A DNA stretch of 36,822 nt from NCBI GenBank assembly GCA_017521465.1, contig JAFXCN010000021.1, positions 1-36,822 of the forward strand, written 5' to 3'. Position numbers and translations under genes: made by a program. This document shows, one piece after another, positions 3,001 to 36,822 of the stretch (the stretch's first letter is position 1; every line of letters starts with the position of its first letter). Source of the DNA: Clostridia bacterium (lineage in GTDB: Bacteria; Bacillota; Clostridia; TANB77; UBA1234). The notes under the pieces were generated by a model. That model had not been told where the DNA came from and searched no databases. It saw only the letters and a list, made by a program, of their open reading frames with translations.

Positions 3001-6000
3001 TTGTATTTGCCTCTGTGTAATTTGTTCCAGCTACAAACTTACTTGCAATTTCTTTAGATTCAGTATAAATAATTGAACCAGATTTTAAATTTCCAAATGC
3101 ATTTTTTCCAAGTATTAATGATGTAGATTGTAAATAAACATTTTGTAGTGCTGTTGCATTATTAAATGCATCTTCACTAATTTGTGTAACTGAATTTGGT
3201 ATAGTTATTTCAGTTAAGCTCGAACCTTCAAAAGATTTATATCCAATTGTTTTTAATCCATTTGGTAATGTTATATTAGTAAATTTCGCTCCTGTACAAG
3301 ACCATGAATCAATTGTTGTTACTGTACTTGGTACTGTATAATTAGTTGTTGTAGCACCCATTGGATATGATATTAATTTTGTTGCATTAATATCTAATAA
3401 AACTCCATCTACTGCTTTATATGATGTATTTCCAGCCTCAACAACAAATCCAGTAACAGGAACTTTAAGGAATGGATTTGTACCAATTGCTGTTGTAGCT
3501 TTTGGTATTTTTACTGTGCCTGTTAAGTTAGAACAATTATAGAAGGCATATGTACCAATAGTTTTAATTGTTGAAGGTAACGAAATTGTTTTTATAAGTG
3601 TAAGATTATAGAAAGCTCTATCTCCTATACTCTTAACGCCTTCTTCTATTACAAGTTTTGAAATTTTTGTTCTGTAATTTACCCACGGAACTTCCGGATA
3701 ATCAGCAAAGTTTTTCATTTCACCTGTTCCTGAAATAGTCATAACGTAATTATTAGCATTTGCAGGATCAGTAGTTAAATATGCGATAACACTTCCATCA
3801 TTGTGTTTTGATATATCCCATCCTGTTGTAAGTGTTGCACTATTTGATGTAATTGAATATCCATGATTATTTTTTACTACAACTCTATACATATATCCAT
3901 TCATAACTTCAGTTGTAGTAACATTATAAGCCGCACCTGTAGCACCATTAATATTAGTCCATGAATTTCCTTTATCTTTACTTAATTGCCATTGATAAGA
4001 ATATGTATCTCCATTATATGAATTCTTTAACGCTACGTTATATGTTGCCATTTTTCCAACAGAAGTTGATACATTATTTATATTTGTAATATCAAATACT
4101 CTCACTGTAATTGTTTTTGATGTTGAATTATATTGTGTTGTTTTTGCAGAAGTTACTGTTATTGTTGCATCACCAGCATCTTTTGCCGTTATTGTAATTG
4201 TTTTTGTTGAATTATTTACAACTGCAGTTGCAATATTTGAGTTTGATGAAGAAACTGTAATTTCTCCATTACCATTGTATGTATATGTTGGACTTACTGT
4301 ACTTCCTTTTGATACCCTATATTCTGCTGTAGAAACAGTCAATGTAGGATTTGTAGCTATAATTGTTAAAGTTCCATTTGCATACACGATATTATAATTC
4401 GATGTTACATCTGTAGAACCATTTTTTATGCTAGCCGCACTTGGTGTAATTGTTGTTGTTCCAACAGCTGAACCATTTGCTTTTAATGTTACTGCAGAAA
4501 GTGTATGTCCACTCACTTGGTTAGTTAACGTAGCATAACTTACTCCTTGCTTAATCGAGCCAGTATATTCTATTGTTTGATTATTTGCTGTAACTGTTAC
4601 ATCTTTTTTATTAATTGTAACATTAACATTTCCCGCAGCTGAATTGTAATTTGAATTACCTGTTATATAATAATACACATTGTATGTATCTACATCAGTT
4701 CTGGTTGGTATTGCGGTATTTCCAGATGTGCTATAGTTACTAGCTGTTAATTTAGTGCCTACAGAATAAAATACAGTTCCTTGGCCAGCTTTAGTAACTT
4801 CTACTAACCCCTGTGCTGCTCCGTTATACGTTAAAGTTTTAGCCTTAAATGCAAATGGGTTTGTTGCTTTACCTATAGAAATAGATTTGCTATTTATATT
4901 GCCCGAAGCATCTTTTACCCAAAAATAGTATGTATCCACATTAACAACTGTATATGTTTTTGTTATTTGTGCAGTTGTTGCAGCCATAGTTGACCAACTA
5001 CTTGGTGTTGCATTTGTATTAGTGAAAGCCCATGCTACTATTCCACTTTGATTATCTGTTGCTTTACCAGTTAAAGTTATATTTCCACCAGTATATATAG
5101 TTGAACTTGCTGTTAAACTATCAATTGTAGGTGCTGTAACATCACAAACGTGACTCTTTATATGATTGCTATTTCTACTACATATAACATTTGTAGTTCC
5201 ACAATCTGAACAAGTTTTTGAATAATCGTGGTTTGATGAATTTATATCTATTTCTTGAGTTTGATATGCAGTACATACACAAGTTCTCTTTTGACTTCCT
5301 TTCGTCATACAAGTTGCCACAGTTGTAATTGTCCATGAACCCCAACTATGTGTTCCTTGATAAGTACATTGTGTACATTTATGGTTAGTATCCCAATTAT
5401 GATTTGCCTCAGTTTGTGTTAATGAACATCTAGAACACTTTTGTGTATGATGTTGAGTTGCACTTATTGACGTATAACTTGTTTTCCAATCATGTCCTAA
5501 TGCATTTACTAATATTGTTGAACATCTTGTACATTTTTGTGGTGCTGTACATGTTGCTGCTGTTCCTCCACTATGTCCTAAGGCATTTGCTAACGTCGTC
5601 GAACATCTTGTACATTTCTGTGCTGTTGTACATGTTGCTGCTGTTCCCGGATTATGTCCTAATGCGTTTGCTAACGTTGTCGAACATCTTGTACATTTTT
5701 GCGCTGCTGTACATGTTGCCGCTGTTCCTGGTGCGTGTCCTAATGCCGCTTTTATTGTTGCTCCACAACCTGATCTTGTACATACTTGTGCTGCTGTACA
5801 TGTTGCTGCTGTTCCTGGCGCATGTCCCAATGCCGCTTTTATTGTCGCTCCACAACCCGATCTTGTACATTTTTGCGCTGTTGTACATGTTGCCGCTGCA
5901 CCTGCGCTATGTCCTAATGCTGCCTTTATTGTCGCTCCGCATCCTGATCTTTTACATGTTTGTGCTGTTGTACATGTTGCTGCCGAACCTGGATCATGTC

Positions 6001-7489
6001 CTAATGCATTTGCTAGTGTTACTCCACAACCTGTTCTTGTACATTTTTGTGCTGTCGTACATGTTGCTGCTGTTCCCGCACTATGTCCTAATGCATTTGT
6101 TAATGTTGTTGAACATCTTGTACATTTTTGTGCTGTTGTACATGTTGCTGCTGTTCCCGGATTATGTCCTAATGCATTTGTTAATGTTGTTGAACATCTT
6201 GTACATTTTTGCGCTGCTGTACATGTTGCTGCCGTTCCTGGATTATGTCCTAATGCATTTGCTAGCACTGTCGAACATCTTGTACACTTCTGTGCTGCTG
6301 TACATGTTGCTGCCGTTCCCGGATTATGTCCTAACGCATTTGCTAATGTTGCACCACAACCCGATCTTGTACATTTTTGTGCTGTTGTACATGTTGCTGC
6401 CGTCCCTGGGCTATGTCCTAACGCCGCTTTTATTGTTGCTCCACAACCTGATCTTGTACATTTTTGTGCTGTTGTACATGTTGCTGCCGTCCCTGGGCTA
6501 TGTCCTAACGCCGCTTTTATTGTTGCTCCACAACCTGATCTTTTACATGTTTGTGCTGTTGTACATGTTGCTGCCGAACCTGGATCATGTCCAAGTGCAT
6601 TTGCTAATGTTGTTGAACATCTTGTACATTTTTGCGCTGTTGTACATGTTGCTGCCGTTCCTGGATTATGTCCAAGTGCATTTGCTAATGTTGTTGAACA
6701 TCTTGTACATTTTTGCGCTGCTGTACACGTTGCTGCTGTCCCTGGATTATGTCCAAGTGCATTTGCTAATGTTGTTGAACATCTTGTACATTTTTGCGCT
6801 GCTGTACATGTTGCTGCCGTTCCTGGATTATGTCCAAGTGCATTTGCTAATGTTGTCGAACATCTTGTACATTTTTGTGCTGCTGTACACGTTGCTGCCG
6901 TCCCTGGATTATGTCCTAATGCATTTGCTAACGTTGCCGAACATCTTGTACATTTTTGCGCTGCTGTACACGTTGCCGCTGCACCTGCACTATGTCCTAA
7001 TGCAGCTATTGCTTCAGTATATGAATGTCCACACGTTCCACATTTATATGTTTTTACGCCTGCCGATGTACATGTTGCCGCTGTTGTTATAGTTCCTGTA
7101 TAACTATGTGATCCAGAATAATAACTACTACAACTACTACAACTGCTTCTATGATATGTTGAATTATAATATTTATATCCACCGTAGCTATGACTTACTG
7201 CATTTTTATAGCCACATTTACTACATGTCTTACTATGTGTCTTTCCCAACCCGTCATTTGTCCAACTGCTTGGAAAGTTGTGCGATACTGATGTTTGATA
7301 AAGATATCCATTACATGAATTACAATATACCTTAACTGTATGCGAACTACTTCCATTACTACTGTATGATTCTCTTATACTACTAGACATACAGCCACTT
7401 GCATGTGCAGCATAAACTTCATTATTTCCAAAAGCTGTTAATATAACTGCCATTAACATTATTATAAAAATCGATACTTTTCTTTTCAT
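77..7489 (-). CDS. Giant secreted multidomain surface protein (Cys/His repeats, Ig-like, LRR, beta-helix)
   Basis: The product is about 2470 residues from the ATG at 7489, which has GGAGG 7 bases upstream and a signal peptide (MKRKVSIFIIMLMAVILTAF, then VYA-AHA). The frame is also open to an ATG at 7636, giving 49 extra residues; see the leader entry. Approximate order of domains: Cys/Tyr/Ser-rich head (30-160); 18 Cys/His repeats (163-662); Ig-like domain (about 780-870); MBG-like sequence (870-1050); Big_2-like Ig (1055-1133); Ig-like (1135-1220); BspA-type leucine-rich repeats, for example KSIGDRAF and KTIGTYAF (1275-1490); Ig-like (1500-1590); parallel beta-helix-like sequence rich in ISGGTI-type turns (1617-1915); Ig-like (1983-2080); a C-terminal part I do not recognise. 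There is no LPXTG motif and no SLH domain, so how it is retained is unclear. The role is inferred to be adhesion or a surface scaffold. It is followed by a pseudopilin-like gene. Confidence 0.85.
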   Translation of the reverse strand: MKRKVSIFIIMLMAVILTAFGNNEVYAAHASGCMSSSIRESYSSNGSSSHTVKVYCNSCNGYLYQTSVSHNFPSSWTNDGLGKTHSKTCSKCGYKNAVSHSYGGYKYYNSTYHRSSCSSCSSYYSGSHSYTGTITTAATCTSAGVKTYKCGTCGHSYTEAIAALGHSAGAAATCTAAQKCTRCSATLANALGHNPGTAATCTAAQKCTRCSTTLANALGHNPGTAATCTAAQKCTRCSTTLANALGHNPGTAATCTAAQKCTRCSTTLANALGHNPGTAATCTTAQKCTRCSTTLANALGHDPGSAATCTTAQTCKRSGCGATIKAALGHSPGTAATCTTAQKCTRSGCGATIKAALGHSPGTAATCTTAQKCTRSGCGATLANALGHNPGTAATCTAAQKCTRCSTVLANALGHNPGTAATCTAAQKCTRCSTTLTNALGHNPGTAATCTTAQKCTRCSTTLTNALGHSAGTAATCTTAQKCTRTGCGVTLANALGHDPGSAATCTTAQTCKRSGCGATIKAALGHSAGAAATCTTAQKCTRSGCGATIKAALGHAPGTAATCTAAQVCTRSGCGATIKAALGHAPGTAATCTAAQKCTRCSTTLANALGHNPGTAATCTTAQKCTRCSTTLANALGHSGGTAATCTAPQKCTRCSTILVNALGHDWKTSYTSISATQHHTQKCSRCSLTQTEANHNWDTNHKCTQCTYQGTHSWGSWTITTVATCMTKGSQKRTCVCTAYQTQEIDINSSNHDYSKTCSDCGTTNVICSRNSNHIKSHVCDVTAPTIDSLTASSTIYTGGNITLTGKATDNQSGIVAWAFTNTNATPSSWSTMAATTAQITKTYTVVNVDTYYFWVKDASGNINSKSISIGKATNPFAFKAKTLTYNGAAQGLVEVTKAGQGTVFYSVGTKLTASNYSTSGNTAIPTRTDVDTYNVYYYITGNSNYNSAAGNVNVTINKKDVTVTANNQTIEYTGSIKQGVSYATLTNQVSGHTLSAVTLKANGSAVGTTTITPSAASIKNGSTDVTSNYNIVYANGTLTIIATNPTLTVSTAEYRVSKGSTVSPTYTYNGNGEITVSSSNSNIATAVVNNSTKTITITAKDAGDATITVTSAKTTQYNSTSKTITVRVFDITNINNVSTSVGKMATYNVALKNSYNGDTYSYQWQLSKDKGNSWTNINGATGAAYNVTTTEVMNGYMYRVVVKNNHGYSITSNSATLTTGWDISKHNDGSVIAYLTTDPANANNYVMTISGTGEMKNFADYPEVPWVNYRTKISKLVIEEGVKSIGDRAFYNLTLIKTISLPSTIKTIGTYAFYNCSNLTGTVKIPKATTAIGTNPFLKVPVTGFVVEAGNTSYKAVDGVLLDINATKLISYPMGATTTNYTVPSTVTTIDSWSCTGAKFTNITLPNGLKTIGYKSFEGSSLTEITIPNSVTQISEDAFNNATALQNVYLQSTSLILGKNAFGNLKSGSIIYTESKEIASKFVAGTNYTEANTSIYYPPVIVKHPLNAKSIWGGTAQFDVEIEEGNPKATYQWYKNGSEIAGATNATYITPPLVANDNGAEYYCLVYNADYYKNRGIVTSNTALLVAIDGRYSVTRGEEEIYFDSLQLAFDSLQNGESLNVKKNVVAESDAQLTGNKSIILNVNDYTITMENNATINIATGSKLTINGTGAINKTVDDSKAVITNNGALDINGNVKMSNTYGYIIDNSGVTTLNDGEYRGIKPIRATGTAESKIIINSDNVKVIAEGNMTKDNGAITLLGSSTLEMTKGSITASSSAAEVKGILVKENATANISGGTITASSSSTVNQADALAMISNGDVNISGNATLSGTRSGITLLDSNTGDVNITGGLIEGGQVGIFNNSNASVKLGNETDEEVGIISPEIRGEKIAYVSFKNNSQLIFYDGVLQSGGKNVIYQDVIDSSNNVITTENMEAIENNSENNHKIYINSNTKEPIYYEGYDIHLTSAEINDKTYDIGYLRIYTAPIVNGPKNVTVKLPETATFEVSAVGGVPSKYTYEWQVSTDGGNTWTIVENGDRPVYETPSSRLEMNGYRYRCAVSNRIFTTYSSVVSLTIDESSIQELPIDIVPIGKYTFPKGNVISKIDGKDAIELELVVKSTSALRKITFNGTELVLENNDPISIDNATIEKSNYIEIKNGTGEIAEYAYTFRIIVTGNGIYTAAFEDVKGHSNSITQTVDTFTDVPLTIEYIVEEPTLYREYPVVRFIANRGVKFVSPEAYAPQMNKQGNGTYVTKYTLNVYGELNNAIFVFADQSGYEKEVNVTVSPSLNKKIRLTSDTTALNPISINEAFEKAQKLENEVEIGNSNSLQYRYGVSNVQADMFMSRARDIGAATILANASVTKSYHSTLPQEMTGTGGSKLSIYGMQGVSNEYVAAFIKGASGSVIYNADAKYVDKINGSLNQYKGFNLSGFSVGNDTQPYVLMTGNSSATNVTDVAQSASFRITIINK
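5504..7003 (-). repeat. 18 tandem Cys/His repeats (27 or 29 codons) inside the giant gene
   Basis: Eighteen units lie head to tail over exactly 1500 bases. Eleven have 27 codons (consensus start ALGHNPGTAATCTAAQKC, then TRCSTTLAN). Seven (units 6, 7, 8, 12, 13, 14, 15) have 29 codons, with TRSGCG in place of TRCS. Each unit carries one His in ALGH and three Cys, the second and third as CxxC or CxxxxC. Units are nearly identical at the DNA level, with mostly silent differences, which points to expansion by recombination and possibly gene conversion. Similar GH...ATC...CxxC repeats are widespread in giant proteins of gut Firmicutes. Metal or disulfide cross-linking is inference. Confidence 0.9.
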
Positions 7490-7653
7490 CTGTATCCTCC
7501 AACTTTCTTTATCATTTGTTATTTCTTCTATATTTATAAATCGGGGGTGACTATGACACATTTCATAATCAACTTGCCTTTTATAAATCTTCGGCTTCTC
7601 TTTTATTATTTGCTTATACTCACTAATCTTTTTCATTCTTCGCTCTTCTCCGC

Positions 7654-11036: not shown

Positions 11037-11070
11037 ACAAAAAAAATCCGACACGTGGTCGGATTTTTTT
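11037..11070. terminator. Bidirectional terminator after the virD4-like gene
   Basis: A TCCGAC stem (11047-11052 with 11058-11063) is flanked by A-runs and T-runs on both sides, so it can work in either direction. It overlaps the stop codon of the VirD4-like gene (11069-11071). Confidence 0.85.
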
Positions 11071-13126
11071 AATCATTGTATGTATTTTTTTTCTTTTTTG
11101 GTGCGCCAAACAGTTCATCGAAACGTTTTTCTAGCTCTGCTTGCAAGTCATATTCTTCTGACTGTGTACTTACTACTGGTTCTTGTACTGGTGGTGCCCC
11201 TGTTCCTTTAAACAAATCTCCTGTACTCATCGTCTCTTCTATTGGAGCACTCGCAACTGATGTTGCCATTACAGGTTCTGTTCTTTGAACTTCAACATCT
11301 TGAACTGGTTTTGTTGCAACTGGTGGTGCACCAAATATATCGTCAAATGATGGCATTCCAAATCCACCTTCGTCTCCTCCAGATATTATTTCATATGGAT
11401 TTGTTATTCTATATTCGCCTCTCTTTGTTTCTGATGAATCTAAGTGGCTTATTTCGCTTGCTCTAGCTTCATTACGTAATGGATGCATTTTATAATACCA
11501 ATATTTTTGTGCTTTTATTGGTCGCATACCTTGTATCAATATAATACATTCTTGAGTGCTCATTCTTCTTAATTCGTCCGGCGTCATAAGTGCTCTTGCC
11601 ATTATTTGGTCTGAGTAACCTCTTCCACTTGTATGTCCATCTTTATCTTCATTCTTAGATACACTGTCTCTTTTTATTGTTTTTTCACCTAATTGTTTAG
11701 AGAATGTCTCAAGTGTTTTTTGTGCATTACTTCCCAAGAACAAGTGCGTGCTACAGTTTGCCATGATGTTTTCTGTAACTTTTTCATCGTATATTTCCAT
11801 AAGCTGGTCTATACTTTGAAGTATTATGCTTATATGTAATTTTTTAGATCTACATGTACTTAATACCCTTTCAAAGTTTGGTATTCTTCCTATGTTCGCA
11901 AACTCATCTAGAATTAAGAACATTGGTACTGGAAGCGCTCCGCCATTTTGATCACCATACTCATATAATCTTTGGAATAATTGCGAGAAGAATATATTCA
12001 TTAAGAAGTCATATGTGCTATGGCTTTCTGGAGTGATGAAGTATACTACCGATCTCACTCTTGCCAATTCTTCAAATTCTATTGTATTTGTACTTGTTAA
12101 CGCTGCAATTTCTTCTGAGTCAAATGCTTCTAATTTTGCAGCAAGTGAAACTAAGATGTTTGAGAATGTTTTTTCAGATCCTAATCTAATTGTTTCAAAC
12201 GCTCTTCTCGCTGGATTATCGAAAGGTAAATCCATGAATAACTTCATCAAATCTTCACCTTCGTTTTCTCCTCCAAGTCTTACCAATGCTAAACAGCTTG
12301 CAAGTGAATGTTCCTCTTTTGGTCTTGTTAATAATATGTAATACATTACCGCTTTTAATAATGCTTCAGATGTTTGATCCCAGAATGGGTCTCCTCCCTT
12401 TCCGCCACCTTTATCATCTTTTTTAGAAATGATTTTAGCAACAATATCAACGTCTGTTGTACCTCTTATATGTGATAGTGGATTATATCCATCACTATAT
12501 TTAGGATCCGCTAAGTTTATTACGTGTATTTCATATCCTTTTTTCTTAAATATTCCCGCCGTTCTATCATATAATTCACCTTTTGGGTCAGTGAAAATAT
12601 ATGACCCCAACATTTGGAATGCATTCGGTATAGCAAATGATGCTGATTTACCAGAACCAGATCCACCGATTACTAAGATGTTACCATTCTTAGCTTGTGG
12701 CGGTGTTGGGATTATTGGCAAGAAGTGGTTTGCAGATAATACAAATCCTTCTTTTTTGCTAAGAACTTCATATTCTTCACCTTTTGACCAATCACCAGAA
12801 CCATGTTCTATATCTTTATATTCACCATCATTTTTCATAGTAAACATTAAATATATTCCACCACATAGAAGTAAAAATGACATTACTTTTAAATTATTCC
12901 AATATTCCGCACTACCATCTCCAAATGAATATCCCAAGTTTTCTCCAACTTTACCGATATTATCAAACATTTGTGGTAGAACATTTAAAAGTCCAGCACC
13001 TTGCTCAGCAACCATTAAATCATGTGCTGTTCGCGTATATGCCGGAACTAATAATAGGGCTAGTGCAACAAACACTATCCCCATCAAAATAAATATCGCT
13101 TTATTTTTCTTAAACCATGCACTCAT
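11069..13126 (-). CDS. VirD4/TraG-type coupling ATPase (type IV secretion)
   Basis: This 685-residue protein has two N-terminal membrane helices (about 11-29 and 81-96), Walker A GGSGSGKS at 154-161 and Walker B FLILDEFANIG near 405. That is the layout of T4SS coupling proteins, hexameric ATPases that bring DNA or protein substrates to a secretion channel. The C-terminal 100 residues form an acidic, Pro-rich tail ending in a Lys run, unlike a core ATPase domain and possibly a recruitment region. The start ATG at 13126 lies 9 bases after GGAGG. It is third in an operon with two small genes. No relaxase, VirB4, VirB6 or VirB1-like gene is visible in the window, so its partner machinery must be elsewhere or absent. 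Confidence 0.88.
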   Translation of the reverse strand: MSAWFKKNKAIFILMGIVFVALALLLVPAYTRTAHDLMVAEQGAGLLNVLPQMFDNIGKVGENLGYSFGDGSAEYWNNLKVMSFLLLCGGIYLMFTMKNDGEYKDIEHGSGDWSKGEEYEVLSKKEGFVLSANHFLPIIPTPPQAKNGNILVIGGSGSGKSASFAIPNAFQMLGSYIFTDPKGELYDRTAGIFKKKGYEIHVINLADPKYSDGYNPLSHIRGTTDVDIVAKIISKKDDKGGGKGGDPFWDQTSEALLKAVMYYILLTRPKEEHSLASCLALVRLGGENEGEDLMKLFMDLPFDNPARRAFETIRLGSEKTFSNILVSLAAKLEAFDSEEIAALTSTNTIEFEELARVRSVVYFITPESHSTYDFLMNIFFSQLFQRLYEYGDQNGGALPVPMFLILDEFANIGRIPNFERVLSTCRSKKLHISIILQSIDQLMEIYDEKVTENIMANCSTHLFLGSNAQKTLETFSKQLGEKTIKRDSVSKNEDKDGHTSGRGYSDQIMARALMTPDELRRMSTQECIILIQGMRPIKAQKYWYYKMHPLRNEARASEISHLDSSETKRGEYRITNPYEIISGGDEGGFGMPSFDDIFGAPPVATKPVQDVEVQRTEPVMATSVASAPIEETMSTGDLFKGTGAPPVQEPVVSTQSEEYDLQAELEKRFDELFGAPKKKKNTYND

Positions 13127-28489: not shown

Positions 28490-28885
28490 ATGGGTGCTAT
28501 TAGTGTATTTATTATTATATTTGTTTTATTTATTATAATTCGCAATTCCAACAAAACTACTAAAACAACAACGGTAGACAAAATACCTGAAACTTTTATT
28601 GAATTTCCAGAATACTCTGGTATTCTTTTAAAAAAACCAAAAATAACTACAACTCCAAAATATGTACGTATTACAATGTTCTATAAAGGTGATATAGACG
28701 AAAACTATTTAGACACTTTAAATAGGGCCGGTTTTGAAAAAGCAAGTCCTGTAAGATATGACAAGAACAACACATATGTAATTGTGGAAAAAATAAATCA
28801 CTTAACAAAAATTGCGTTTCACATTAAAACTGCAGGAAATAATAGTACTAATCCAGTCGATAATAATAATCCAATTAGTTTTTAA
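28490..28885 (+). CDS. Small membrane-anchored protein of unknown function (131 aa)
   Basis: One N-terminal membrane helix (residues 2-17) is followed by a Thr/Lys-rich linker and a compact domain of about 70 residues. That domain reads PKYVRITMFYKGDIDENYLD, then LNRAGFEKASPVRYDKNNTYVIVEK, an alternating beta/alpha pattern. The tail is Asn-rich (NNSTNPVDNNNPISF). AGGAGG precedes the ATG. It converges with the reverse transcriptase gene and shares its terminator. No family recognised. Confidence 0.7.
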   Translation: MGAISVFIIIFVLFIIIRNSNKTTKTTTVDKIPETFIEFPEYSGILLKKPKITTTPKYVRITMFYKGDIDENYLDTLNRAGFEKASPVRYDKNNTYVIVEKINHLTKIAFHIKTAGNNSTNPVDNNNPISF

Positions 28886-28888
28886 TAA

Positions 28889-28932
28889 ATCAAAGAAGCG
28901 CAAACTTATATTTTAGTTTGCGCTTCTTTATT
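28889..28932. terminator. Bidirectional terminator overlapping the RT stop codon
   Basis: AAGAAGCGCAAACT pairs with AGTTTGCGCTTCTT around an A/T loop, with T-runs on both strands. The last RT codons and its TAA (28906-28908) lie inside the hairpin. Confidence 0.85.
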
Positions 28933-30108
28933 TTTGTAATATTCATTAACCAAAGATTTATAATTGCATTTTTTCAAAAGTTCATAAGGAGCCTTTTGAA
29001 AATTTTTTTTATTATGCTTACCCGTTGCAATATAACGTTGCCATTCTTGCATATAACAATCTACTACTTTCAAACTTTTATCTGTATTAATAGTTGGAAA
29101 AAACCAATATTTCCAACTTAGATCATCATCTTCTTTACCATAAAATTTTCTATTAAAAATCTTATTCATTGTTAGCAAACCTGCTTCTATAGGCTTATCG
29201 TTTTTAAGCATCCACCTTCTTACCGATTTCGCTTTTCTTCTTATTTTTCCCTTTATCTTCTTTACAGAATTTTCACTCAAATCTATAATCCCATTCTCGT
29301 AAGAAAATCCTAAAAATTCTACTTTTTCTCCTGGATTATAAAAATACTCTTTTTCCTTATTAATCGCTAATCCCATATTATCCAAATAGCTTTTTATATA
29401 TTCCTGATGTTTCTTTATATTTTCCTCACTATCAAAAACTATAATGTCATCAGCATACCTACAATAAGTAATTTTATTATAATGAAAATAATAGTCTAAA
29501 TCTTTTAAATAATAATTAGCTAAAAATGATGATATTGGAACTCCCGCCATTATTCCTTTTTCTTCTTCAATAATATTTCCATTTTCTTCAACCTTATTAT
29601 TAATTACTAACTGCTTTATTAAATTATATAATTTGTAATCATTCAAATCGTTTTCTAATGGATACAATAATTTCTCAATAGGAATGCTATTAAAGTAATT
29701 TTTTATATCAACCTTATATGCATGTTTGCTTTTTATATTACTTCGTATTAAATCGAAAATAGCCTTTTTAGCACCACTCTTTTGCCTAAAAGAATATAAA
29801 TTGGGTGCAAATAAATAATCATATTTATACATTAAAAAAACTAACATCTTTAGTATATATGTTTCTTCTTTACTATATAAATAGACTACTCTTTTTTTGT
29901 TTTTCCCTACTTTATTTATTGATACTTTTCTAGGAATAGAAAAGCTATAGTCTTCGTTTATTATTTTAGTTACAATTTCGGTATACTCTTTATTTAAAAT
30001 ATATTTTTCATATTGCTTTATTATTTTAGATGTTAAAACAGATTCTTTCTTATGTTCTAAAAAGTTATGCCACAATTGGTCATTAGCTAATGAATAAATT
30101 ACACTCAA
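28906..30108 (-). CDS. Stand-alone reverse transcriptase with upstream structured RNA (retron- or DRT-like)
   Basis: This 400-residue protein has RT blocks in order: KKRVVYLYSKEETYILKML (RT1); NLYSFRQKSGAKKAI (RT2); YKVDIKNYFNSI with the first catalytic Asp (RT3); KGIMAGVPISSFLANYYLKD (RT4); CRYADDIIVF with the YADD catalytic pair (RT5); GLAINKEK then VEFLGF (RT6/7). A basic thumb follows (KKIKGKIRRKAKSVRRW), with a C-terminal domain ending SLVNEYYKNKE. No HNH endonuclease, maturase or integrase domain is present. The start is a TTG at 30108, seven bases after GGAGG; the longer frame from another TTG at 30135 overlaps the RNA arm and lacks a ribosome site. Group II intron boundaries, a DGR template repeat and the retron VTG/NAxxH motifs were not found. 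It most resembles clostridial RTs of unknown group; a phage-defence role is inference. Confidence 0.85.
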   Translation of the reverse strand: MSVIYSLANDQLWHNFLEHKKESVLTSKIIKQYEKYILNKEYTEIVTKIINEDYSFSIPRKVSINKVGKNKKRVVYLYSKEETYILKMLVFLMYKYDYLFAPNLYSFRQKSGAKKAIFDLIRSNIKSKHAYKVDIKNYFNSIPIEKLLYPLENDLNDYKLYNLIKQLVINNKVEENGNIIEEEKGIMAGVPISSFLANYYLKDLDYYFHYNKITYCRYADDIIVFDSEENIKKHQEYIKSYLDNMGLAINKEKEYFYNPGEKVEFLGFSYENGIIDLSENSVKKIKGKIRRKAKSVRRWMLKNDKPIEAGLLTMNKIFNRKFYGKEDDDLSWKYWFFPTINTDKSLKVVDCYMQEWQRYIATGKHNKKNFQKAPYELLKKCNYKSLVNEYYKNKEAQTKI

Positions 30109-30130
30109 AATTTTTCCTCCAAACATAAAA

Positions 30131-30282
30131 TGCAAGGAAGAATTCTATTGACAGAAATATATAGCATGCAATGCGATATATTTCTAGGACAAGATTAAAT
30201 ATATCGCGGCCACTTGCACAACCTTTTTACAGCAATATACTTCATCCCACTGCAAGTGTTAAAAAATAACATCTTCCTTGCA
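30131..30282 (-). ncRNA. Structured RNA upstream of the reverse transcriptase (msr/msd-like)
   Basis: An 11-bp long-range inverted repeat bounds the element. On the minus strand TGCAAGGAAGA (30282-30272) opens it and TCTTCCTTGCA (30141-30131) closes it. Between them are hairpin 1, CACTTGCA (30258-30251) with TGCAAGTG (30218-30211) around a 32-base loop, and hairpin 2, GCGATATATTT with AAATATATCGC (30207-30197 with 30183-30173, 13-base loop). The promoter upstream predicts a 5' end at about 30281, exactly at the first arm. The RT ribosome site starts ten bases after the second arm. This matches the a1/a2-bounded RNA of retrons or the RNA of DRT systems in layout, though the sequence was not recognised. 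Confidence 0.7.
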
Positions 30283-30287
30283 GTCTA

Positions 30288-30316
30288 ATTATATATTAAT
30301 ATTTTTGTATAGGCAA
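30288..30316 (-). promoter_or_regulatory. Promoter of the RNA-RT unit
   Basis: The minus strand has TTGCCT (30311-30316), 17 bases, then TATAAT (30288-30293). Initiation about 7 bases on falls on the first arm of the RNA's inverted repeat. Confidence 0.75.
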
Positions 30317-30318
30317 CA

Positions 30319-30348
30319 AATAGGCGCATGAAAATTCATGCGCCTATT
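30319..30348. terminator. Strong hairpin after the Cys-rich gene
   Basis: A 12-bp perfect stem, AATAGGCGCATG with CATGCGCCTATT, has a six-base loop and lies 3 bases after the stop. Only a short T-run follows, so it may insulate the RT promoter rather than terminate fully. Confidence 0.65.
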
Positions 30349-30351
30349 ATC

Positions 30352-30588
30352 TTAATCTCTATCATAATCATGACAATTCTCTTCAAGCGTTACATATCGA
30401 TTATGCCTCGTACAAAAATATGTGCAACTTTCCTTTAAATTTCGTGTATATGTATAGACTTCAGTCGTCATTACATCTTTATTACTCCTGTACCGACAGC
30501 TCTTACACGTTCTTCCATCTTTCACTTTATAAAAATTCTTGTTAATAACGCCTTTTAACCAACCTACGATACAAGAAATTATTCTCAT
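30352..30588 (-). CDS. Small Cys-rich, probably metal-binding protein (78 aa)
   Basis: After a hydrophobic N-terminal segment (MRIISCIVGWLKGVI), the sequence carries TCKSC, then CTYFC plus TRH, and finally NCHDYDRD: a CxxC, CxxxC and CH arrangement that could hold zinc. AAAGGAG stands eight bases before the ATG at 30588; upstream in-frame starts lack a ribosome site. It has its own promoter and hairpin and lies directly upstream of the RNA-RT unit on the same strand. A role as partner of the RT is conceivable only by position. I do not recognise the family. Confidence 0.65.
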   Translation of the reverse strand: MRIISCIVGWLKGVINKNFYKVKDGRTCKSCRYRSNKDVMTTEVYTYTRNLKESCTYFCTRHNRYVTLEENCHDYDRD

Positions 30589-30622
30589 ACTCTCATCTCC
30601 TTTATTTAAATTTGTTGTCATA

Positions 30623-30651
30623 ATATTACTACTCTCACGGGAATAATACAA
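30623..30651 (-). promoter_or_regulatory. Promoter of the Cys-rich gene
   Basis: The minus strand has TTGTAT (30646-30651), 17 bases, then TAATAT (30623-30628). Confidence 0.55.
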
Positions 30652-30723: not shown

Positions 30724-30765
30724 CAAAAAATCTGGCAGAACTTTTCGTTCTGCCAGATTTTTTAT
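30724..30765. terminator. Bidirectional terminator after the SLH giant gene
   Basis: AAAAAATCTGGCAGAAC, 5-base loop, then the perfect complement GTTCTGCCAGATTTTTT (30747-30763). It lies at the stop codon of the minus-strand gene. Confidence 0.9.
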
Positions 30766-33700
30766 TATTTTTCTAAGTATGGATATTCATGAGATTTCCA
30801 TTCTTCTTTTCCGTCTTTTGCTAATACACATGTATGAGTTGTGATCGCTTCAACTAAATCTTCATATCCCCAGTGACTAGCTTTTAAATCACTAAATGGA
30901 CTATCATTAACTTTTACATCTTCTACATTTCTACCTAACAATCTATTGATAGTTGCTGCAGCTTCTGCTCTTGTTAATTTAGCATTTGGTTTAAATGCTC
31001 CATTTTCGTAACCAATCATCCATCCTTTTGTTGCAACTTTTTCAATTGAATCTTTTGCCCAATGTTCTTTTGTTACATCTGTAAATTCTACTGATGTTTT
31101 AGAAGTTAATTTAGAATATCTTACAATAATCGCAGCTAGTTCTGCTCTTGATATTTCTTTTAATGGTTTAAATGAACCATCGTCATAACCTTTTAAAATT
31201 CCTTTTTCTGTTAAGTACATTATTGCATCGTATGACCATCTGTTTTTATCAACATCTGAATATTCTATATTAGCTTTTGTATTTAATGTGTTGTTTGATC
31301 CAACATATAATCTATAGAAAATCATTGCGATTTCTTCTCTTGTAACTTTTCCATCTGGTCTTACTGTACCATCTTCATATCCACGAATATACCATTCATG
31401 AGTTACAGTTTCTTCTTTATCTGATGAACCACTTCCACCACCTGTTCCGCCGCCTGATGATTTTTTCTTAACTTCTACATTAAATGTTATAACTACTGTT
31501 TCTTTTTCATTTGTTACTTCCATTTTAAATGTATCTGTTCCTAAATATTCTTCATTTGGTGTATAAGTAAATGTTCTTGTTGTTTCATCAAATGTTACTG
31601 TTCCATTAGCTGGATTTTCTGTAATTGCGTATTTTAATGCATCTCCATTCTTATCAACTTCTGGTAATTCATTTGATGTGTATGGTTTGTTTTTATATGT
31701 CGAAATTGACTTATCTTTTTCACTTACAATATCACTTTCTTCTAATTCCTTTCTTATTGTTACTGTAACTGTAGCTTCTTCAGAAACATTTCCAACTTCA
31801 TCTTTTGCTACTACTTCAAAACTATCTTCTCCGTAATATCCATCTTCTGGAGTATATGTATACTCACCTGTTGCTGGATCTAATGTTACAGTTCCATGTT
31901 CTGGCTCTGTAGCAACTTCATATTCTGTTACTTCAAAGTTATCTGTTGCTTCTACTTTACCATCTACTGGCGTGTTTTGTTCTGTAGCTTTTTCATCATC
32001 TTCTGCAACTGGAGCATCTAAGTCTACTTTTACATGTACACTTGATTCTACTTTTGGTTCGTCTTTATCTTCTGGTGTAGTTGTTGCTATAATATCATAT
32101 TCTCCACTTTCATCGATGATAATGTCTCCAGTATCTGGATCTGTAAAGTCATCTGTTCTATCTTCTCCGTCTTGATCAATAATTGTTATAGTTGTCTTTT
32201 CACCTGGTTCATCTTCGTCTGTTTCTACTTTTACTTCTTCTTTTGTTGAACCATCTGCTGGTATTGGGTTACCAGGAACTGGAGGTCTACCTTCAATTAT
32301 TATACTTTCAATTATTGAAATTATTGGAGCATCTGGAGCTTCTGCGTCAATTGTTACTTCATATTCAACAGGATCAGATTCGTTTCCTAAATCGTCTTTT
32401 GATGTAACTTCTACTACATATGTTCCTTCTTCTTCTAATATGTAATTTCCATTTTCATCTTTATTTAATGTATCTGTTATGTCTTTTCCATCTTTTGTTA
32501 TTGTAACTTCTGGTGTAACTTCTGCATCTTCTCTATTGTCTACACCTGGTACAATCTCAATTATTACATTGTCATTTGTTGTTCCACCATTTGGTATTGC
32601 GTTTCCTGTTTCTTCATCTGTTCCTTTAATTGCTGGAGTTGGAGCTGTTTTATCGATTGTTACCGTTTGTGTTACTTCTTCTGATTGATTTCCATCTTCG
32701 TCTTCTGTTTTTACAGTAATTTCATATTCTCCTTCTTCATCTAAGATATAATTTCCGTCTTCGTCTTTATCTAATGTATCTGTTATATCTTCACCATCTT
32801 TTTTAACCTCAACAACAACTTCTTGCTCTTCTTCTGGTGCTTCTGTTGAAATTATTACATCTTCTTTTGTAACTCCACCATCTGGTACGGTTTCTTGTTC
32901 TGGTGTTTTTTCATTTGCTTCTAATGATGGTTTTTCTAATACAACTTTTTTATCAATTGTCACTTCATATATAGCTTCGTCTGATTCGTTTCCAGCTTCG
33001 TCTTTTGTTGTTGCTGTAATTACGTATACGCCTTCTTCTGTTAATAAATATTTTCCATCTGCATCTGGTGTGATTTCTACTGGAACGCCATCTTTAGTTA
33101 TTGTTACTGTTGGTTCACCTTCAGCTTCAATTGTAATTTCAACATTTTGTCTTGTTGTTTCTCCACTTGGAAGGTCTTTCGTCTCACCAGCTGTTTCTTT
33201 ACCTGTAATTGTTGGTGCTGCAGGAGCTGTTTTATCAATTGTTACTTCATATGTAACAGGATCTGATTCATTTCCTGCTTTATCTTCTGTTACTACTGTT
33301 ATTACATATTCTCCATCTTCAGTTAATGGATAGTTTCCATTTTCATCTGGTGTAATCTCTACTGGTGTTCCATCTTTTGTTATTGTTACTGTTGTTTCAA
33401 CACCTTCGTCTCTTTCATCAACACCTGGTGTAACTTCAACTAATACATCCTTATTAGTTGTGCTGCCTGTTGGAAGTTCTTCTGTGCTTGGAACACCTTC
33501 AATAACTTCTTTTCCTGTTACTGTTGGATTTGATGGTGCAGTATGATCAACTTTGAACACTTCGCTTCTTACTAATGTAGTGTTACCAACTAAATCTGTT
33601 GCAACTACCCATAAGTAATAATCTCCATCTTCTGTTGGCGCTGCTATTGTATCTCCACTTTCAAATTCATTTGTAATTTGATCTGCAGTTGGTTCTAAAG

Positions 33701-36700
33701 TAGCATCTGTTGTCCACATATATTTTGTACCATCTAGTACTGAATAATCAGTTACAGTTACTACTGTTTCTACTACAGATAGGTCTTCTGCATTTCCGTT
33801 TGGATCAAATTCTACTGTTGGTGCTTTTGTATCAATGATCATATATACATATGCCATATGAACTACACCATTTTCATCTTCAGCCATTGCCCATACATAA
33901 GCTTGTTTTTCAATTCCTTCTTCAAATAATACATCGCTATCATTTGTTGCAGAGTTTTCAAAGTCGCTTACTAATGGTTTTTCAGCATCGTAACATATTA
34001 AATATTTAATGCTATCTTCTTTGAATGGTTTTTGGGTTCCATCTACAGTTATATGTACACCTTTACCTGTAATTCCTACATTTTCAATTATTGTTACTTC
34101 GATTGGTAATTCTGTATTATCAACCCAGAATTCACCACTTCTTGCTGTAATTTTATTTCCAACATTATCTTCACCAATTACCCATAGATAATATATACCT
34201 TGGCCATCTTCTGGTGTTTCAATTAAGCTTCCATTTACAAAACTATTTGTAAATAGACTTTCTTCTGGATCTTCGATTGTTGCATCTGTTGTCCAGAAAT
34301 ATTTTAAACTATCTTCTTTTACTTTACTTCCTAAATCACTAAATGTAACTTTTGTGCTGTGTTCTGGTGCATATGCTTTATTTTCATATGGATCAAAACT
34401 TACTACTACATTTTTATCATCTAGGTTAAATACGTTACTTCCAATTATTACTGGATTTCCTGTATTATCTTCTGCATAAATCCATAAGTAATATAGACCT
34501 TCTACATCTTCTGGTGTAGAAATTTCTTCACCATTTGTAAAGCTTTCTGTTATTTCTTCTTTACTTGGTGCTGTTGGACTTGTTGTCCATACATATTTTA
34601 AGCTATCTAAATTTACACCACTTTCGTCATTACCTTCTGTTACTGTAACTTTTGTTTCATGGCTATTTGCAAAATCAATGCTTCCATCTGGATCAAAAGT
34701 TACTTGTGGCACTCTATTATCTAACTTAAATACTTTACTTACTTCCTTTACAACATTTCCAGCTTTATCTTCAACCATTACCCACAAATAGTAATCTCCT
34801 GTTAATCCTTCTGGTGTTGTTACTGTATCACCAGATTTGAAGTTATCAGCAAATTTATTATCAACTGGTTCTTCTGTGTCGCTTGTTGTCCATACATATT
34901 TTGCAGATGTTATCATTGAATAATCTGAAATTGTTACAACTGTGCTATGTGTATTAGCAAAAGTTGTATTTCCATCTGGGTCGAATGTAATAACTGGTAA
35001 CTTTGTATCTATAACAATAGTTTCTGTTTTCTCAATTACATTTCCTGCATTATCTTCAGCTCTTATATATAAGAAATATTGTCCTTCGATATTTTCAGGG
35101 AATCTATTTTCTGCATTGTTTGTATAGCTTTCTGGATACGTTCTGTTTCCTTCTGCTACTGGCTTTAAGCTAATTTCATATTTTAATTCAGATTCGTTAA
35201 CACCTGAACGTTCTTCGCCATCAAACATATCTGTAACAATTACTTCAATCGCACTATATATTGATGAACCTTCTGCTAGAAGTGTATATTCTAATGTTGG
35301 AGCTTCGTTATCTACTTTTTGCACTCCACTTCCTGCAATTATTGTATTTCCTACATTATCTTTTGCAATAACCCATAAATAATATTCTCCTGTTACACCT
35401 TCTGGTGTTGCAATTTCATCTCCTGATGCAAATGCTGTTCCGTTTGCAAAATCTGCTTCTGCCGGAGCTGTGTTACTTGTTGTCCATACATACTTTAATG
35501 AACTTGCATCTACTCCTGAATTAATTACACCTTCTAAATCTTCAACAGTTACTGTTACTTTATGTTCTTTTTCATAAGTTGTATTTTCATTTTTATCAAA
35601 TTCAACTGTTGGTTTTACTTGATCAACTAAGAAGTTTTCACTTCTTACTATAGCTACGTTTCCTGCATTATCTTTTGCAAGAATCCATAGATAATGATTA
35701 TCTGATACATCAGCTGGTGTTTCTATTTGATCTCCAGATGCAAAGCTTGTTGCATTTGCAAAATCAGCTTCTGTTAATGTAGCTGTACTTGTTTTCCATA
35801 TATATTTTAATGATGTAGCATTTACTCCACTTACAAATGTTCCTAAATCTTCAACAGTTACAACTGTTATAAAACTTTGCCCATATTCACCATTACTTCC
35901 ATTTGGATTGAAAGTTACTGTTGGTAATATTTTTTCAATTCTTACTACTTTAGTTTCAGCTTCACTCTTATTACCAGCTTTATCATAAGTATAAGCTGTA
36001 ATTGTTGTTTCGCCTTCGTTTTTAATTGTTATTTTTCCACCTGATGTAATTTCTGTTTCAGCTTTTGTTGTTGCACCAGATAAAATATATGTTACTTTAT
36101 CTAAACCTGCAACATCAGCATTACCTGCTGTTATTGTTACTTCAACGTCATCATTTGTCCATTCAATATTTGCATCTATTGTTGGTTTTTCTGGATTTGA
36201 TTTATCTATTATGATTGATGATGTTGTTGTTGCTTCTGCTGATTTACCTTTTGAATCAGTTACTGTAACTGTTGCTTTATAACTTCCATCTGTAGTTATA
36301 TCATCAGCATTCCAAGTTATTGTTGCAGTTGTAGATTCTGTACCAGCTCCTGCTCCTGTAGCTGCTACTGTTCCTTGAACACCAGCAAGAGTTGCACCAA
36401 ATGTTAAAGAATCCCATGTTTCTGGAGCATTAGTTCCTTTTGTTGCTGTTAATGTTAATGTAATTTCATCTCCTGATTTAAAGAATTCACCATTAAAGCT
36501 TCCTAATGTTACTGTTGGTGCAGTATTTAAATCATGTGATGGATCATAATCACATGTTCCATCATATGGATCATCATCTTTATGACCATCAGGTATAGTA
36601 TTTAATGTTTTTGTTTCTTTATGTGATGAATTGTAATTACAAATTCTTGTTTGTATTTCTGGTTGTGTACATGTTGGCTGAGTTGTTGTTACCCAAGCTC

Positions 36701-36822
36701 CCCAATCATGTGCATCTGCATCTACTGATAATGTTTTTGTTTCTTTATGTGATGAATTGTAATTACATGTTTTTGTTTGAATTTCTGCTTGCATACATGT
36801 TGCTTCTGTTGTTGTTACCCAA
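30765..36822 (-). CDS. Giant S-layer-anchored surface protein, 5' end beyond window
   Basis: At least 2019 codons; the frame is open to base 36821, and the Met at 36794 is internal to a repeat (WVTTTEATCMQAEIQT), so the start lies outside. From N to C: about 40-residue Cys/His repeats (HDWGAWVTTTQPTCTQPEIQ, then CNYNSSHKETKTL); two Ig-like domains; eight modules of about 100 residues beginning like PTVTFDPDGN and ending YYLWVIAEDNAGN; five bacterial Ig modules (TKDGTPVEITPDENGNYPLT); and two cadherin/tandem-95-like modules (VTLDPATGEYTYTPEDGYYG). A Gly/Ser linker then leads to three SLH domains (ITGYENG-type: YIRGYEDGTVRPDGKVTREE; ILKGYDDGSFKPLKEISRAE; MIGYENGAFKPNAKLTRAEA). The SLH triad normally binds secondary wall polymer. 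The protein is very acidic. A role in adhesion or as an S-layer-associated fibre is inferred. Confidence 0.9.
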   Translation of the reverse strand, partial: WVTTTEATCMQAEIQTKTCNYNSSHKETKTLSVDADAHDWGAWVTTTQPTCTQPEIQTRICNYNSSHKETKTLNTIPDGHKDDDPYDGTCDYDPSHDLNTAPTVTLGSFNGEFFKSGDEITLTLTATKGTNAPETWDSLTFGATLAGVQGTVAATGAGAGTESTTATITWNADDITTDGSYKATVTVTDSKGKSAEATTTSSIIIDKSNPEKPTIDANIEWTNDDVEVTITAGNADVAGLDKVTYILSGATTKAETEITSGGKITIKNEGETTITAYTYDKAGNKSEAETKVVRIEKILPTVTFNPNGSNGEYGQSFITVVTVEDLGTFVSGVNATSLKYIWKTSTATLTEADFANATSFASGDQIETPADVSDNHYLWILAKDNAGNVAIVRSENFLVDQVKPTVEFDKNENTTYEKEHKVTVTVEDLEGVINSGVDASSLKYVWTTSNTAPAEADFANGTAFASGDEIATPEGVTGEYYLWVIAKDNVGNTIIAGSGVQKVDNEAPTLEYTLLAEGSSIYSAIEVIVTDMFDGEERSGVNESELKYEISLKPVAEGNRTYPESYTNNAENRFPENIEGQYFLYIRAEDNAGNVIEKTETIVIDTKLPVITFDPDGNTTFANTHSTVVTISDYSMITSAKYVWTTSDTEEPVDNKFADNFKSGDTVTTPEGLTGDYYLWVMVEDKAGNVVKEVSKVFKLDNRVPQVTFDPDGSIDFANSHETKVTVTEGNDESGVNLDSLKYVWTTSPTAPSKEEITESFTNGEEISTPEDVEGLYYLWIYAEDNTGNPVIIGSNVFNLDDKNVVVSFDPYENKAYAPEHSTKVTFSDLGSKVKEDSLKYFWTTDATIEDPEESLFTNSFVNGSLIETPEDGQGIYYLWVIGEDNVGNKITARSGEFWVDNTELPIEVTIIENVGITGKGVHITVDGTQKPFKEDSIKYLICYDAEKPLVSDFENSATNDSDVLFEEGIEKQAYVWAMAEDENGVVHMAYVYMIIDTKAPTVEFDPNGNAEDLSVVETVVTVTDYSVLDGTKYMWTTDATLEPTADQITNEFESGDTIAAPTEDGDYYLWVVATDLVGNTTLVRSEVFKVDHTAPSNPTVTGKEVIEGVPSTEELPTGSTTNKDVLVEVTPGVDERDEGVETTVTITKDGTPVEITPDENGNYPLTEDGEYVITVVTEDKAGNESDPVTYEVTIDKTAPAAPTITGKETAGETKDLPSGETTRQNVEITIEAEGEPTVTITKDGVPVEITPDADGKYLLTEEGVYVITATTKDEAGNESDEAIYEVTIDKKVVLEKPSLEANEKTPEQETVPDGGVTKEDVIISTEAPEEEQEVVVEVKKDGEDITDTLDKDEDGNYILDEEGEYEITVKTEDEDGNQSEEVTQTVTIDKTAPTPAIKGTDEETGNAIPNGGTTNDNVIIEIVPGVDNREDAEVTPEVTITKDGKDITDTLNKDENGNYILEEEGTYVVEVTSKDDLGNESDPVEYEVTIDAEAPDAPIISIIESIIIEGRPPVPGNPIPADGSTKEEVKVETDEDEPGEKTTITIIDQDGEDRTDDFTDPDTGDIIIDESGEYDIIATTTPEDKDEPKVESSVHVKVDLDAPVAEDDEKATEQNTPVDGKVEATDNFEVTEYEVATEPEHGTVTLDPATGEYTYTPEDGYYGEDSFEVVAKDEVGNVSEEATVTVTIRKELEESDIVSEKDKSISTYKNKPYTSNELPEVDKNGDALKYAITENPANGTVTFDETTRTFTYTPNEEYLGTDTFKMEVTNEKETVVITFNVEVKKKSSGGGTGGGSGSSDKEETVTHEWYIRGYEDGTVRPDGKVTREEIAMIFYRLYVGSNNTLNTKANIEYSDVDKNRWSYDAIMYLTEKGILKGYDDGSFKPLKEISRAELAAIIVRYSKLTSKTSVEFTDVTKEHWAKDSIEKVATKGWMIGYENGAFKPNAKLTRAEAAATINRLLGRNVEDVKVNDSPFSDLKASHWGYEDLVEAITTHTCVLAKDGKEEWKSHEYPYLEK

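What the first reader, a model, noticed from the sequence alone, without database searches (positions are those of the whole stretch)
28906..30316. Reverse transcriptase with a promoter-defined structured RNA bounded by long-range inverted repeats
Seen: a sigma-A promoter (30288-30316) places the 5' end at one arm of an 11-bp inverted repeat. The other arm is 130 bases on, just before the RT ribosome site. Inside are two strong hairpins (8 bp and 11 bp). Known: retrons have a1/a2 arms bounding msr-msd directly before the RT, and several DRT defence systems keep a template RNA upstream of a lone RT. The RT has YADD but not the retron VTG or NAxxH motifs I would expect. It is therefore a candidate for an undescribed retron-like or DRT-like group.
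Basis: partly seen in the sequence, partly recalled or inferred. Interest (0 to 1): 0.88.

Follow-up and report, generated by a model that had tools for sequence, protein, structure and literature searches.

The report
Bacterial reverse transcriptase with partner RNA
A gut-type Clostridia bacterium carries a reverse transcriptase of the poorly studied UG26 group together with a conserved, knotted 150-nucleotide RNA. The two almost always occur together and probably form a machine that copies a short stretch of the RNA into repetitive DNA, most likely against phages, although the RNA and the enzyme family were each already catalogued.

Summary
The RT (28906-30108, minus strand) is a strong member of UG26, an uncharacterised group of "unknown group" defence-type RTs (E 1.4e-143). 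It is not a retron or a group II intron RT. Just upstream lies a structured RNA (30282-30131), catalogued in Rfam as RT-5 (RF03026; the window scores below its cut-off).

41 of 42 pairs show double changes (0 of 500 shuffles). A model built without the window finds it at E 8e-14.

RNA and RT co-occur almost perfectly: in a class-wide sample the RNA is in the 15 genomes with strong UG26 hits and no others. In 23 of 67 genomes the RNA lies 1.2-9.5 kb from the RT, so it is a separate gene, not a leader.

Best explanation: an RNA-templated, protein-primed repeat-synthesising RNP like DRT9/DRT10/DRT3a, with a clade-specific small partner protein. Template position and defence role are inferred. My test for a DRT10-like A-B-A' template was inconclusive.

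The parts
28906..30108 (-). UG26 reverse transcriptase, 400 aa, TTG start, RBS GGAGG 30120-30116; catalytic YADD; C-terminal GYRSLVNEYY-type motif
   Evidence: RT_UG26 E 1.4e-143; start codon; conserved residues; AlphaFold model with RT fold and thumb
30131..30282 (-). Structured noncoding RNA (Rfam RT-5, extended here to include the closing stem)
   Evidence: CM built without the window: E 8.2e-14; RF03026 E 1.3e-5 but below gathering score; sole hit in own genome
30288..30316 (-). Sigma-A type promoter, TTGCCT-17-TATAAT, start expected near 30281
   Evidence: TATAAT in same place in 29 of 37 homologues without the COG2852-type gene upstream
30272..30282 (-). P1 5' strand (closing stem, 11 bp)
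   Evidence: covariation
30131..30141 (-). P1 3' strand
   Evidence: covariation
30257..30271 (-). H1 small hairpin (UGUUA/UAACA)
   Evidence: covarying pairs; seen in centroid fold
30251..30256 (-). P2 5' strand (pseudoknot partner of 30213-30218)
   Evidence: 98% paired, double changes at 5-6 of 6 pairs
30213..30218 (-). P2 3' strand, in the loop of the P4-P5 hairpin
30232..30248 (-). P5a + P5b 5' strands (GGGAU, AGUAUAUUGC)
   Evidence: 90-94% paired, all pairs with double changes
30191..30207 (-). P5b + P5a 3' strands (GCGAUAUAUU, AUCUU)
   Evidence: centroid fold
30208..30223 (-). P4 helix GGU/GCC enclosing the P2 3' strand
30153..30185 (-). P3 hairpin (14 of 15 bp), proposed 5' boundary of the template
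   Evidence: repeat I1; a hairpin at this place in all but a few homologues; in the wide alignment its 7 consensus pairs are 85% paired, all with double changes
30142..30152 (-). Single-stranded segment GUCAAUAGAAU between P3 and P1: proposed template (inference)
   Evidence: position matches the template loop of DRT9/DRT10/DRT3 RNAs; A-B-A' test inconclusive
28490..28882 (+). Convergent 131-aa small protein, clade-specific partner; N-terminal hydrophobic helix
   Evidence: family A4 in only 5 of 287 genomes of the order, all with the RT nearby

Best explanation
The locus encodes a ribonucleoprotein of Class 2 DRT type. The RNA is transcribed from its own promoter, closes on itself through P1, and is held by the RT through its pseudoknot (P2/P4/P5). 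The RT copies the short loop between hairpin P3 and P1, stops at P3, re-anneals and repeats, giving long repetitive single-stranded cDNA. Priming is probably by a protein residue, perhaps in the conserved C-terminal SLVNEYY segment. A small partner protein (convergent 131-aa protein here; a COG2852-type protein in other clades) is the likely regulator or effector. The likely role is anti-phage defence. Shown here by sequence: RT family, RNA structure, RT-RNA pairing across genomes, a separate RNA gene, specificity of the partner protein. Inferred: RNA-RT binding, template position, repeat product, priming residue, defence.
For: RT_UG26 476 bits, against 119 for UG17/DRT10 and 68 for Drt9. Covariation of 42 pairs including the pseudoknot, score 0.63 against 0.26 shuffled. 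Window found by an independent model. RNA and RT co-occur in 72 genomes of one family, RNA-only in 1, Fisher p 1.6e-20; class-wide the RNA is in the 15 genomes with strong UG26 hits only. The RNA stays 5' of the RT on the same strand, but in 23 of 67 genomes 1.2-9.5 kb away. Order of P3 hairpin, then unpaired loop, matches the template rule of DRT10 and DRT3a. Conserved C-terminal Ser/Tyr residues; DRT10 primes from a C-terminal Ser or Tyr. Fold matches DRT9, Z 22.0, though group II intron RTs score higher, Z 28. Partner protein specificity; RTasCOG2852 in other clades.
Against: No expression, RNA binding or cDNA data. The A/A' repeat exceeds composition shuffles but not swaps between sequences (p 0.19 for all, median 0.13 after random thinning). 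In the window both copies of the best repeat (UUCU) lie inside or overlap helices. UG26 is in 69% of one family's genomes, sometimes inside a housekeeping operon (nadD-RNA-RT-rsfS), which is unusual for defence. Scans of window genes show no clear neighbouring defence system.
Confidence: 0.6

Rival explanations
1. Same RNP and templated DNA synthesis, but a resident cellular function (for example DNA-end or stress related) rather than phage defence.
For: Present in 79 of 115 genomes of one family, one match each; genus-level clades in the RT tree; fixed in housekeeping surroundings in several genomes; no close relative found in viral contigs, and none covering 80% of the query in plasmid or phage records.
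Against: Patchy elsewhere (9 of 287 genomes in the window's own order); every studied Class 2 UG system read here is antiviral; partner proteins change between clades, as in defence systems.
Confidence: 0.25
2. The RNA is a cis-acting leader that regulates the RT mRNA.
For: It lies directly before the RT ribosome site in the window and in 44 of 67 family genomes.
Against: In 23 of 67 genomes 1.2-9.5 kb with other genes, in inspected cases on the opposite strand, separate it from the RT. It keeps its own TATAAT and ends at a closed P1 stem.
Confidence: 0.05
3. A retron-like element: the arms act as a1/a2 and part of the RNA becomes msDNA joined to a branching G.
For: Inverted repeat bounding an RNA directly before a lone RT.
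Against: RT scores 60 bits against a retron cut-off of 235; no VTG or NAxxH motif in the translation; the RNA is a tightly pseudoknotted scaffold with one short free loop, not a long msd hairpin.
Confidence: 0.03
4. A degenerate group II intron RT with intron RNA remnants.
For: Best structural matches are group II intron RTs (Z 28).
Against: 128 bits against a cut-off of 300; no intron family above threshold in the window; RNA unlike any intron domain and matches RT-5. RT fold similarity is expected for any bacterial RT.
Confidence: 0.01

Closest known systems
UG26 reverse transcriptases (PADLOC RT_UG26)
   Same: The RT is a full-length member.
   Different: No function, RNA or product for UG26 was found in the papers I could search; the primary UG/Abi classification paper was not readable.
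Rfam RT-5 RNA (RF03026)
   Same: Same RNA: 15 of 18 homologous loci scanned match above threshold; the window matches full length at E 1.3e-5.
   Different: The Rfam model covers P5, P4 and P3 only. P1, H1 and the P2 pseudoknot are added here. The window itself scores below the Rfam cut-off, with a longer P3.
DRT10 (UG17) with its ncRNA and SLATT protein
   Same: Class 2 UG RT, about 137-nt RNA, stem-loop followed by a template loop, conserved C-terminal Ser/Tyr.
   Different: No SLATT protein found next to it; a different small partner. A-B-A' not established here. RT only distantly related (119 against 476 bits).
DRT9 (UG28) and DRT3a (UG3)
   Same: RNA-templated repeat synthesis from a loop next to a stem-loop; similar fold for DRT9.
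   Different: Fixed templates (poly-U, ACACAC); none of these seen here.
DRT2 ncRNA and telomerase RNA
   Same: Pseudoknotted RNA plus a stem bounding a template (PMC12039810).
   Different: Element order differs: pseudoknot, stem, template here; stem, template, pseudoknot there. No homology of RNA shown.

Membership tests
UG26 RT | Full-length match to the RT_UG26 profile far above other RT groups | tested here: met
   476.5 bits, residues 11-404 over profile 2-397 of 398; next 122.9
Rfam RT-5 RNA | Covariance model match at or above gathering score | tested here: not met
   Window 36.0 bits against 45.7, full length, E 1.3e-5; close relatives pass. Homology is shown by model R1, so this is a divergent relative by Rfam's own rule
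Class 2 DRT system | Conserved, covarying ncRNA encoded with the RT | tested here: met
Class 2 DRT system | ncRNA-templated repetitive cDNA | not testable with these tools
   Needs cDNA sequencing
Class 2 DRT system | Anti-phage activity | not testable with these tools
   Needs phage assays
DRT10 | UG17 RT | tested here: not met
   UG17 profile 118.7 bits against 476.5 for UG26
DRT10 | SLATT-domain partner gene | tested here: not met
   No Pfam hit for the two flanking small genes
DRT10 | A-B-A' template pattern after a stem-loop | tested here: inconclusive
   3-nt or longer repeat in 84%, not above sequence swaps
Retron | Retron RT profile and VTG/NAxxH motifs | tested here: not met
   60 bits against cut-off 235 for the one retron profile matched; motifs absent in translation
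Retron | Branched msDNA | not testable with these tools
   Needs nucleic acid analysis
Group II intron RT | Maturase/RT equivalog score and intron RNA boundaries | tested here: not met
   128 against 300 bits; no intron RNA in Rfam scan

The most novel reading that the evidence does not exclude
UG26 plus RT-5 RNA is a telomerase-like repeat-adding RNP (pseudoknot, boundary hairpin, short template) that has become a near-core chromosomal machine in one Clostridia family, with a role beyond phage defence.
Probability: 0.12. Interest if true: 0.85.

Novelty: new variant of a known kind. Interest (0 to 1): 0.58.

Why it matters
It joins two orphan catalogue entries, an RT group for which I found no reported RNA or function (UG26) and an RNA family for which I found no reported function (RT-5), into one system. 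It gives a testable full structure, template position and partner proteins. If the mechanism holds, UG26 would be a further Class 2 DRT type with its own RNA architecture. Its near-fixed presence in one family makes it a good case for asking whether such RNPs can leave defence.

Tried and rejected
Retron and group II intron readings: profile scores below cut-offs, no intron RNA at the Rfam gathering threshold. A DRT10-like A-B-A' template: first promising by eye; a first automatic segmentation was unusable; the cleaner test gave p 0.19 on all sequences and 0.02 on a thinned set, but that thinning was order-biased and random thinning gave median p 0.13, so only 'compatible'. Search for UG17/DRT10 in Clostridia to compare RNAs: none in 245 genomes, and the control rang nowhere. 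No relative in viral contigs; no match covering 80% of the query in plasmids or phages. Homology between the two partner protein families beyond an MGLF-like N-terminus: not found. A first Rfam pass at gathering threshold gave nothing and nearly led me to call the RNA new; the relaxed search corrected this. Two primary papers (the 2017 structured-RNA survey and the 2022 UG/Abi classification, both recalled from memory) were not held.

Full report
What is there. On the minus strand, a 400-aa reverse transcriptase (28906-30108, TTG start behind GGAGG) follows a promoter (30316-30288) and a 152-nt RNA (30282-30131). The RT is a full-length UG26 member (E 1.4e-143; next best RT profiles at about 120 bits). 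It falls below the curated cut-offs for group II maturase, Drt3a, Drt2 and the one retron RT profile matched. The 11-bp inverted repeat is exact at the stated place.

Homologues. Relatives came from genome contigs and whole-genome searches. Nearly all those with a close RNA show the same upstream architecture. No relative was found in viral contigs, and no match covering 80% of the query in plasmid or phage records.

RNA structure. I aligned 32 upstream RNAs without the window (A1) and wrote the structure by hand: P1 closing stem, H1 hairpin, P2 forming a pseudoknot with the hairpin P5a/P5b/P4, P3 hairpin, a short loop, P1 3' strand. On A1, 84% of cells pair and 40 of 44 pairs have double changes. 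The structure was derived from these sequences, which favours it. On 71 matches aligned by the covariance model (an alignment that leans to the non-pseudoknotted part), 92% pair and 41 of 42 pairs have double changes, none of 500 shuffles as high, and sliding the partners destroys the signal. P2 was not in the model and is still 98% paired. The model R1, built without the window, finds the window at E 8e-14 and nothing else in its genome. The RNAfold centroid of the window RNA alone shows P1, H1, P4/P5 and P3; the minimum-energy structure differs, as expected when a pseudoknot cannot be drawn.

Already catalogued. A relaxed Rfam search identifies the RNA as RT-5 (RF03026), E 1.3e-5 but below the gathering score for the window; 15 of 18 homologous loci scanned pass. 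The Rfam model contains P5, P4 and P3, not P1, H1 or the pseudoknot (structure line). So the RNA is known as a candidate; its full fold and its partner RT group are what this work adds. Whether the original survey drew the pseudoknot could not be checked.

RNA and RT belong together. In one family (f44) the RT is in 79 of 115 genomes and the RNA in 73 of 113. They share 72 genomes; one has RNA only; of seven RT-only genomes, five belong to two divergent genera, and four of these plus G479 show RNA matches, some weak, in the locus search. Class-wide, the RNA occurs in 15 of 382 genomes, exactly those with strong UG26 hits. In 23 of 67 genomes with both on one contig the RNA is 1.2-9.5 kb from the RT, always upstream on the same strand, with other genes between; in the loci inspected these include opposite-strand genes. 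Where no COG2852-type gene lies directly upstream, 29 of 37 RNAs have a perfect TATAAT just before P1; with such a gene, 1 of 34, suggesting co-transcription there. The RNA is thus a gene of its own.

Partners. In 25 loci the gene just before the RNA encodes a 150-200 aa protein; one member matches PADLOC's RTasCOG2852 at E 4e-53 while another did not match. The window's genome lacks it at the tested level, though the control search rang nowhere. Instead, a convergent 131-aa protein (28490-28882) belongs to a family found in only 5 of 287 genomes of the order, all UG26 carriers with it near the RT. The five were the query, so their presence is by construction; the absence elsewhere is the result. 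The two partner families show no clear homology.

Mechanism. DRT10, DRT9 and DRT3a copy a short loop next to a stem-loop into repeats, DRT9 and DRT10 with protein priming. UG26 has the same order: P3, then an unpaired segment, then P1. The RT ends in a conserved SLVNEYY-like segment, comparable with DRT10's C-terminal priming Ser/Tyr. The AlphaFold model is confident in the core but weak at the C-terminus, so proximity to the active site was not tested. A direct test for A-B-A' repeats was inconclusive. For the window the best repeat is UUCU...UUCU, giving a possible 14-nt cDNA unit TTCTATTGACAGAA, at low confidence because both copies overlap helices.

Role. Defence is the default by family, but the genes around the window RT show no clear defence system and the system is nearly fixed in one family, in several genomes next to the housekeeping genes nadD and rsfS, with genus-level clades in the RT tree. 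A resident function therefore stays open.

Verdict. A real, well-supported RT-RNA system; a divergent member of catalogued families with unreported mechanism. New here are the complete covarying fold, the UG26/RT-5 pairing across genomes, the placement of the RNA as a separate gene and the clade-specific partner.

Noticed in passing
window 28490-28882 (+): 131-aa protein with an N-terminal hydrophobic helix; its family occurs only in UG26-bearing genomes of the order.
   Followed up: partly
L007 4001-5199; L059: RT gene interrupted (frameshift in L007, in-frame stop in L059) while the RNA upstream is intact in both.
   Followed up: no
L103, L105, L050, L066: UG26 RT and its RNA sit near nadD and rsfS, housekeeping genes, in several genomes of one family.
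   Followed up: partly
L100 8390-10774 and 17 similar loci: A 794-aa HD-domain protein gene directly abuts the RT start (distance -4) in many f44 genomes whose RNA lies kilobases away.
   Followed up: partly
window 11069-13126 (-): TraG/VirD4-type coupling protein, suggesting a conjugative element nearby.
   Followed up: no
window 77-7636 (-) and 30765-36794 (-): Two very large proteins: one with a repeated Cys-rich unit (LGHNPGTAATCTAAQKCTRC-like), one with Ig-like and S-layer domains.
   Followed up: no
window 30352-30651 (-): Small ORF just upstream of the RNA; the 78-aa form tested has no Pfam or PADLOC match. A strong inverted repeat at 30319-30348 follows it but was not called as a terminator.
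   Followed up: no
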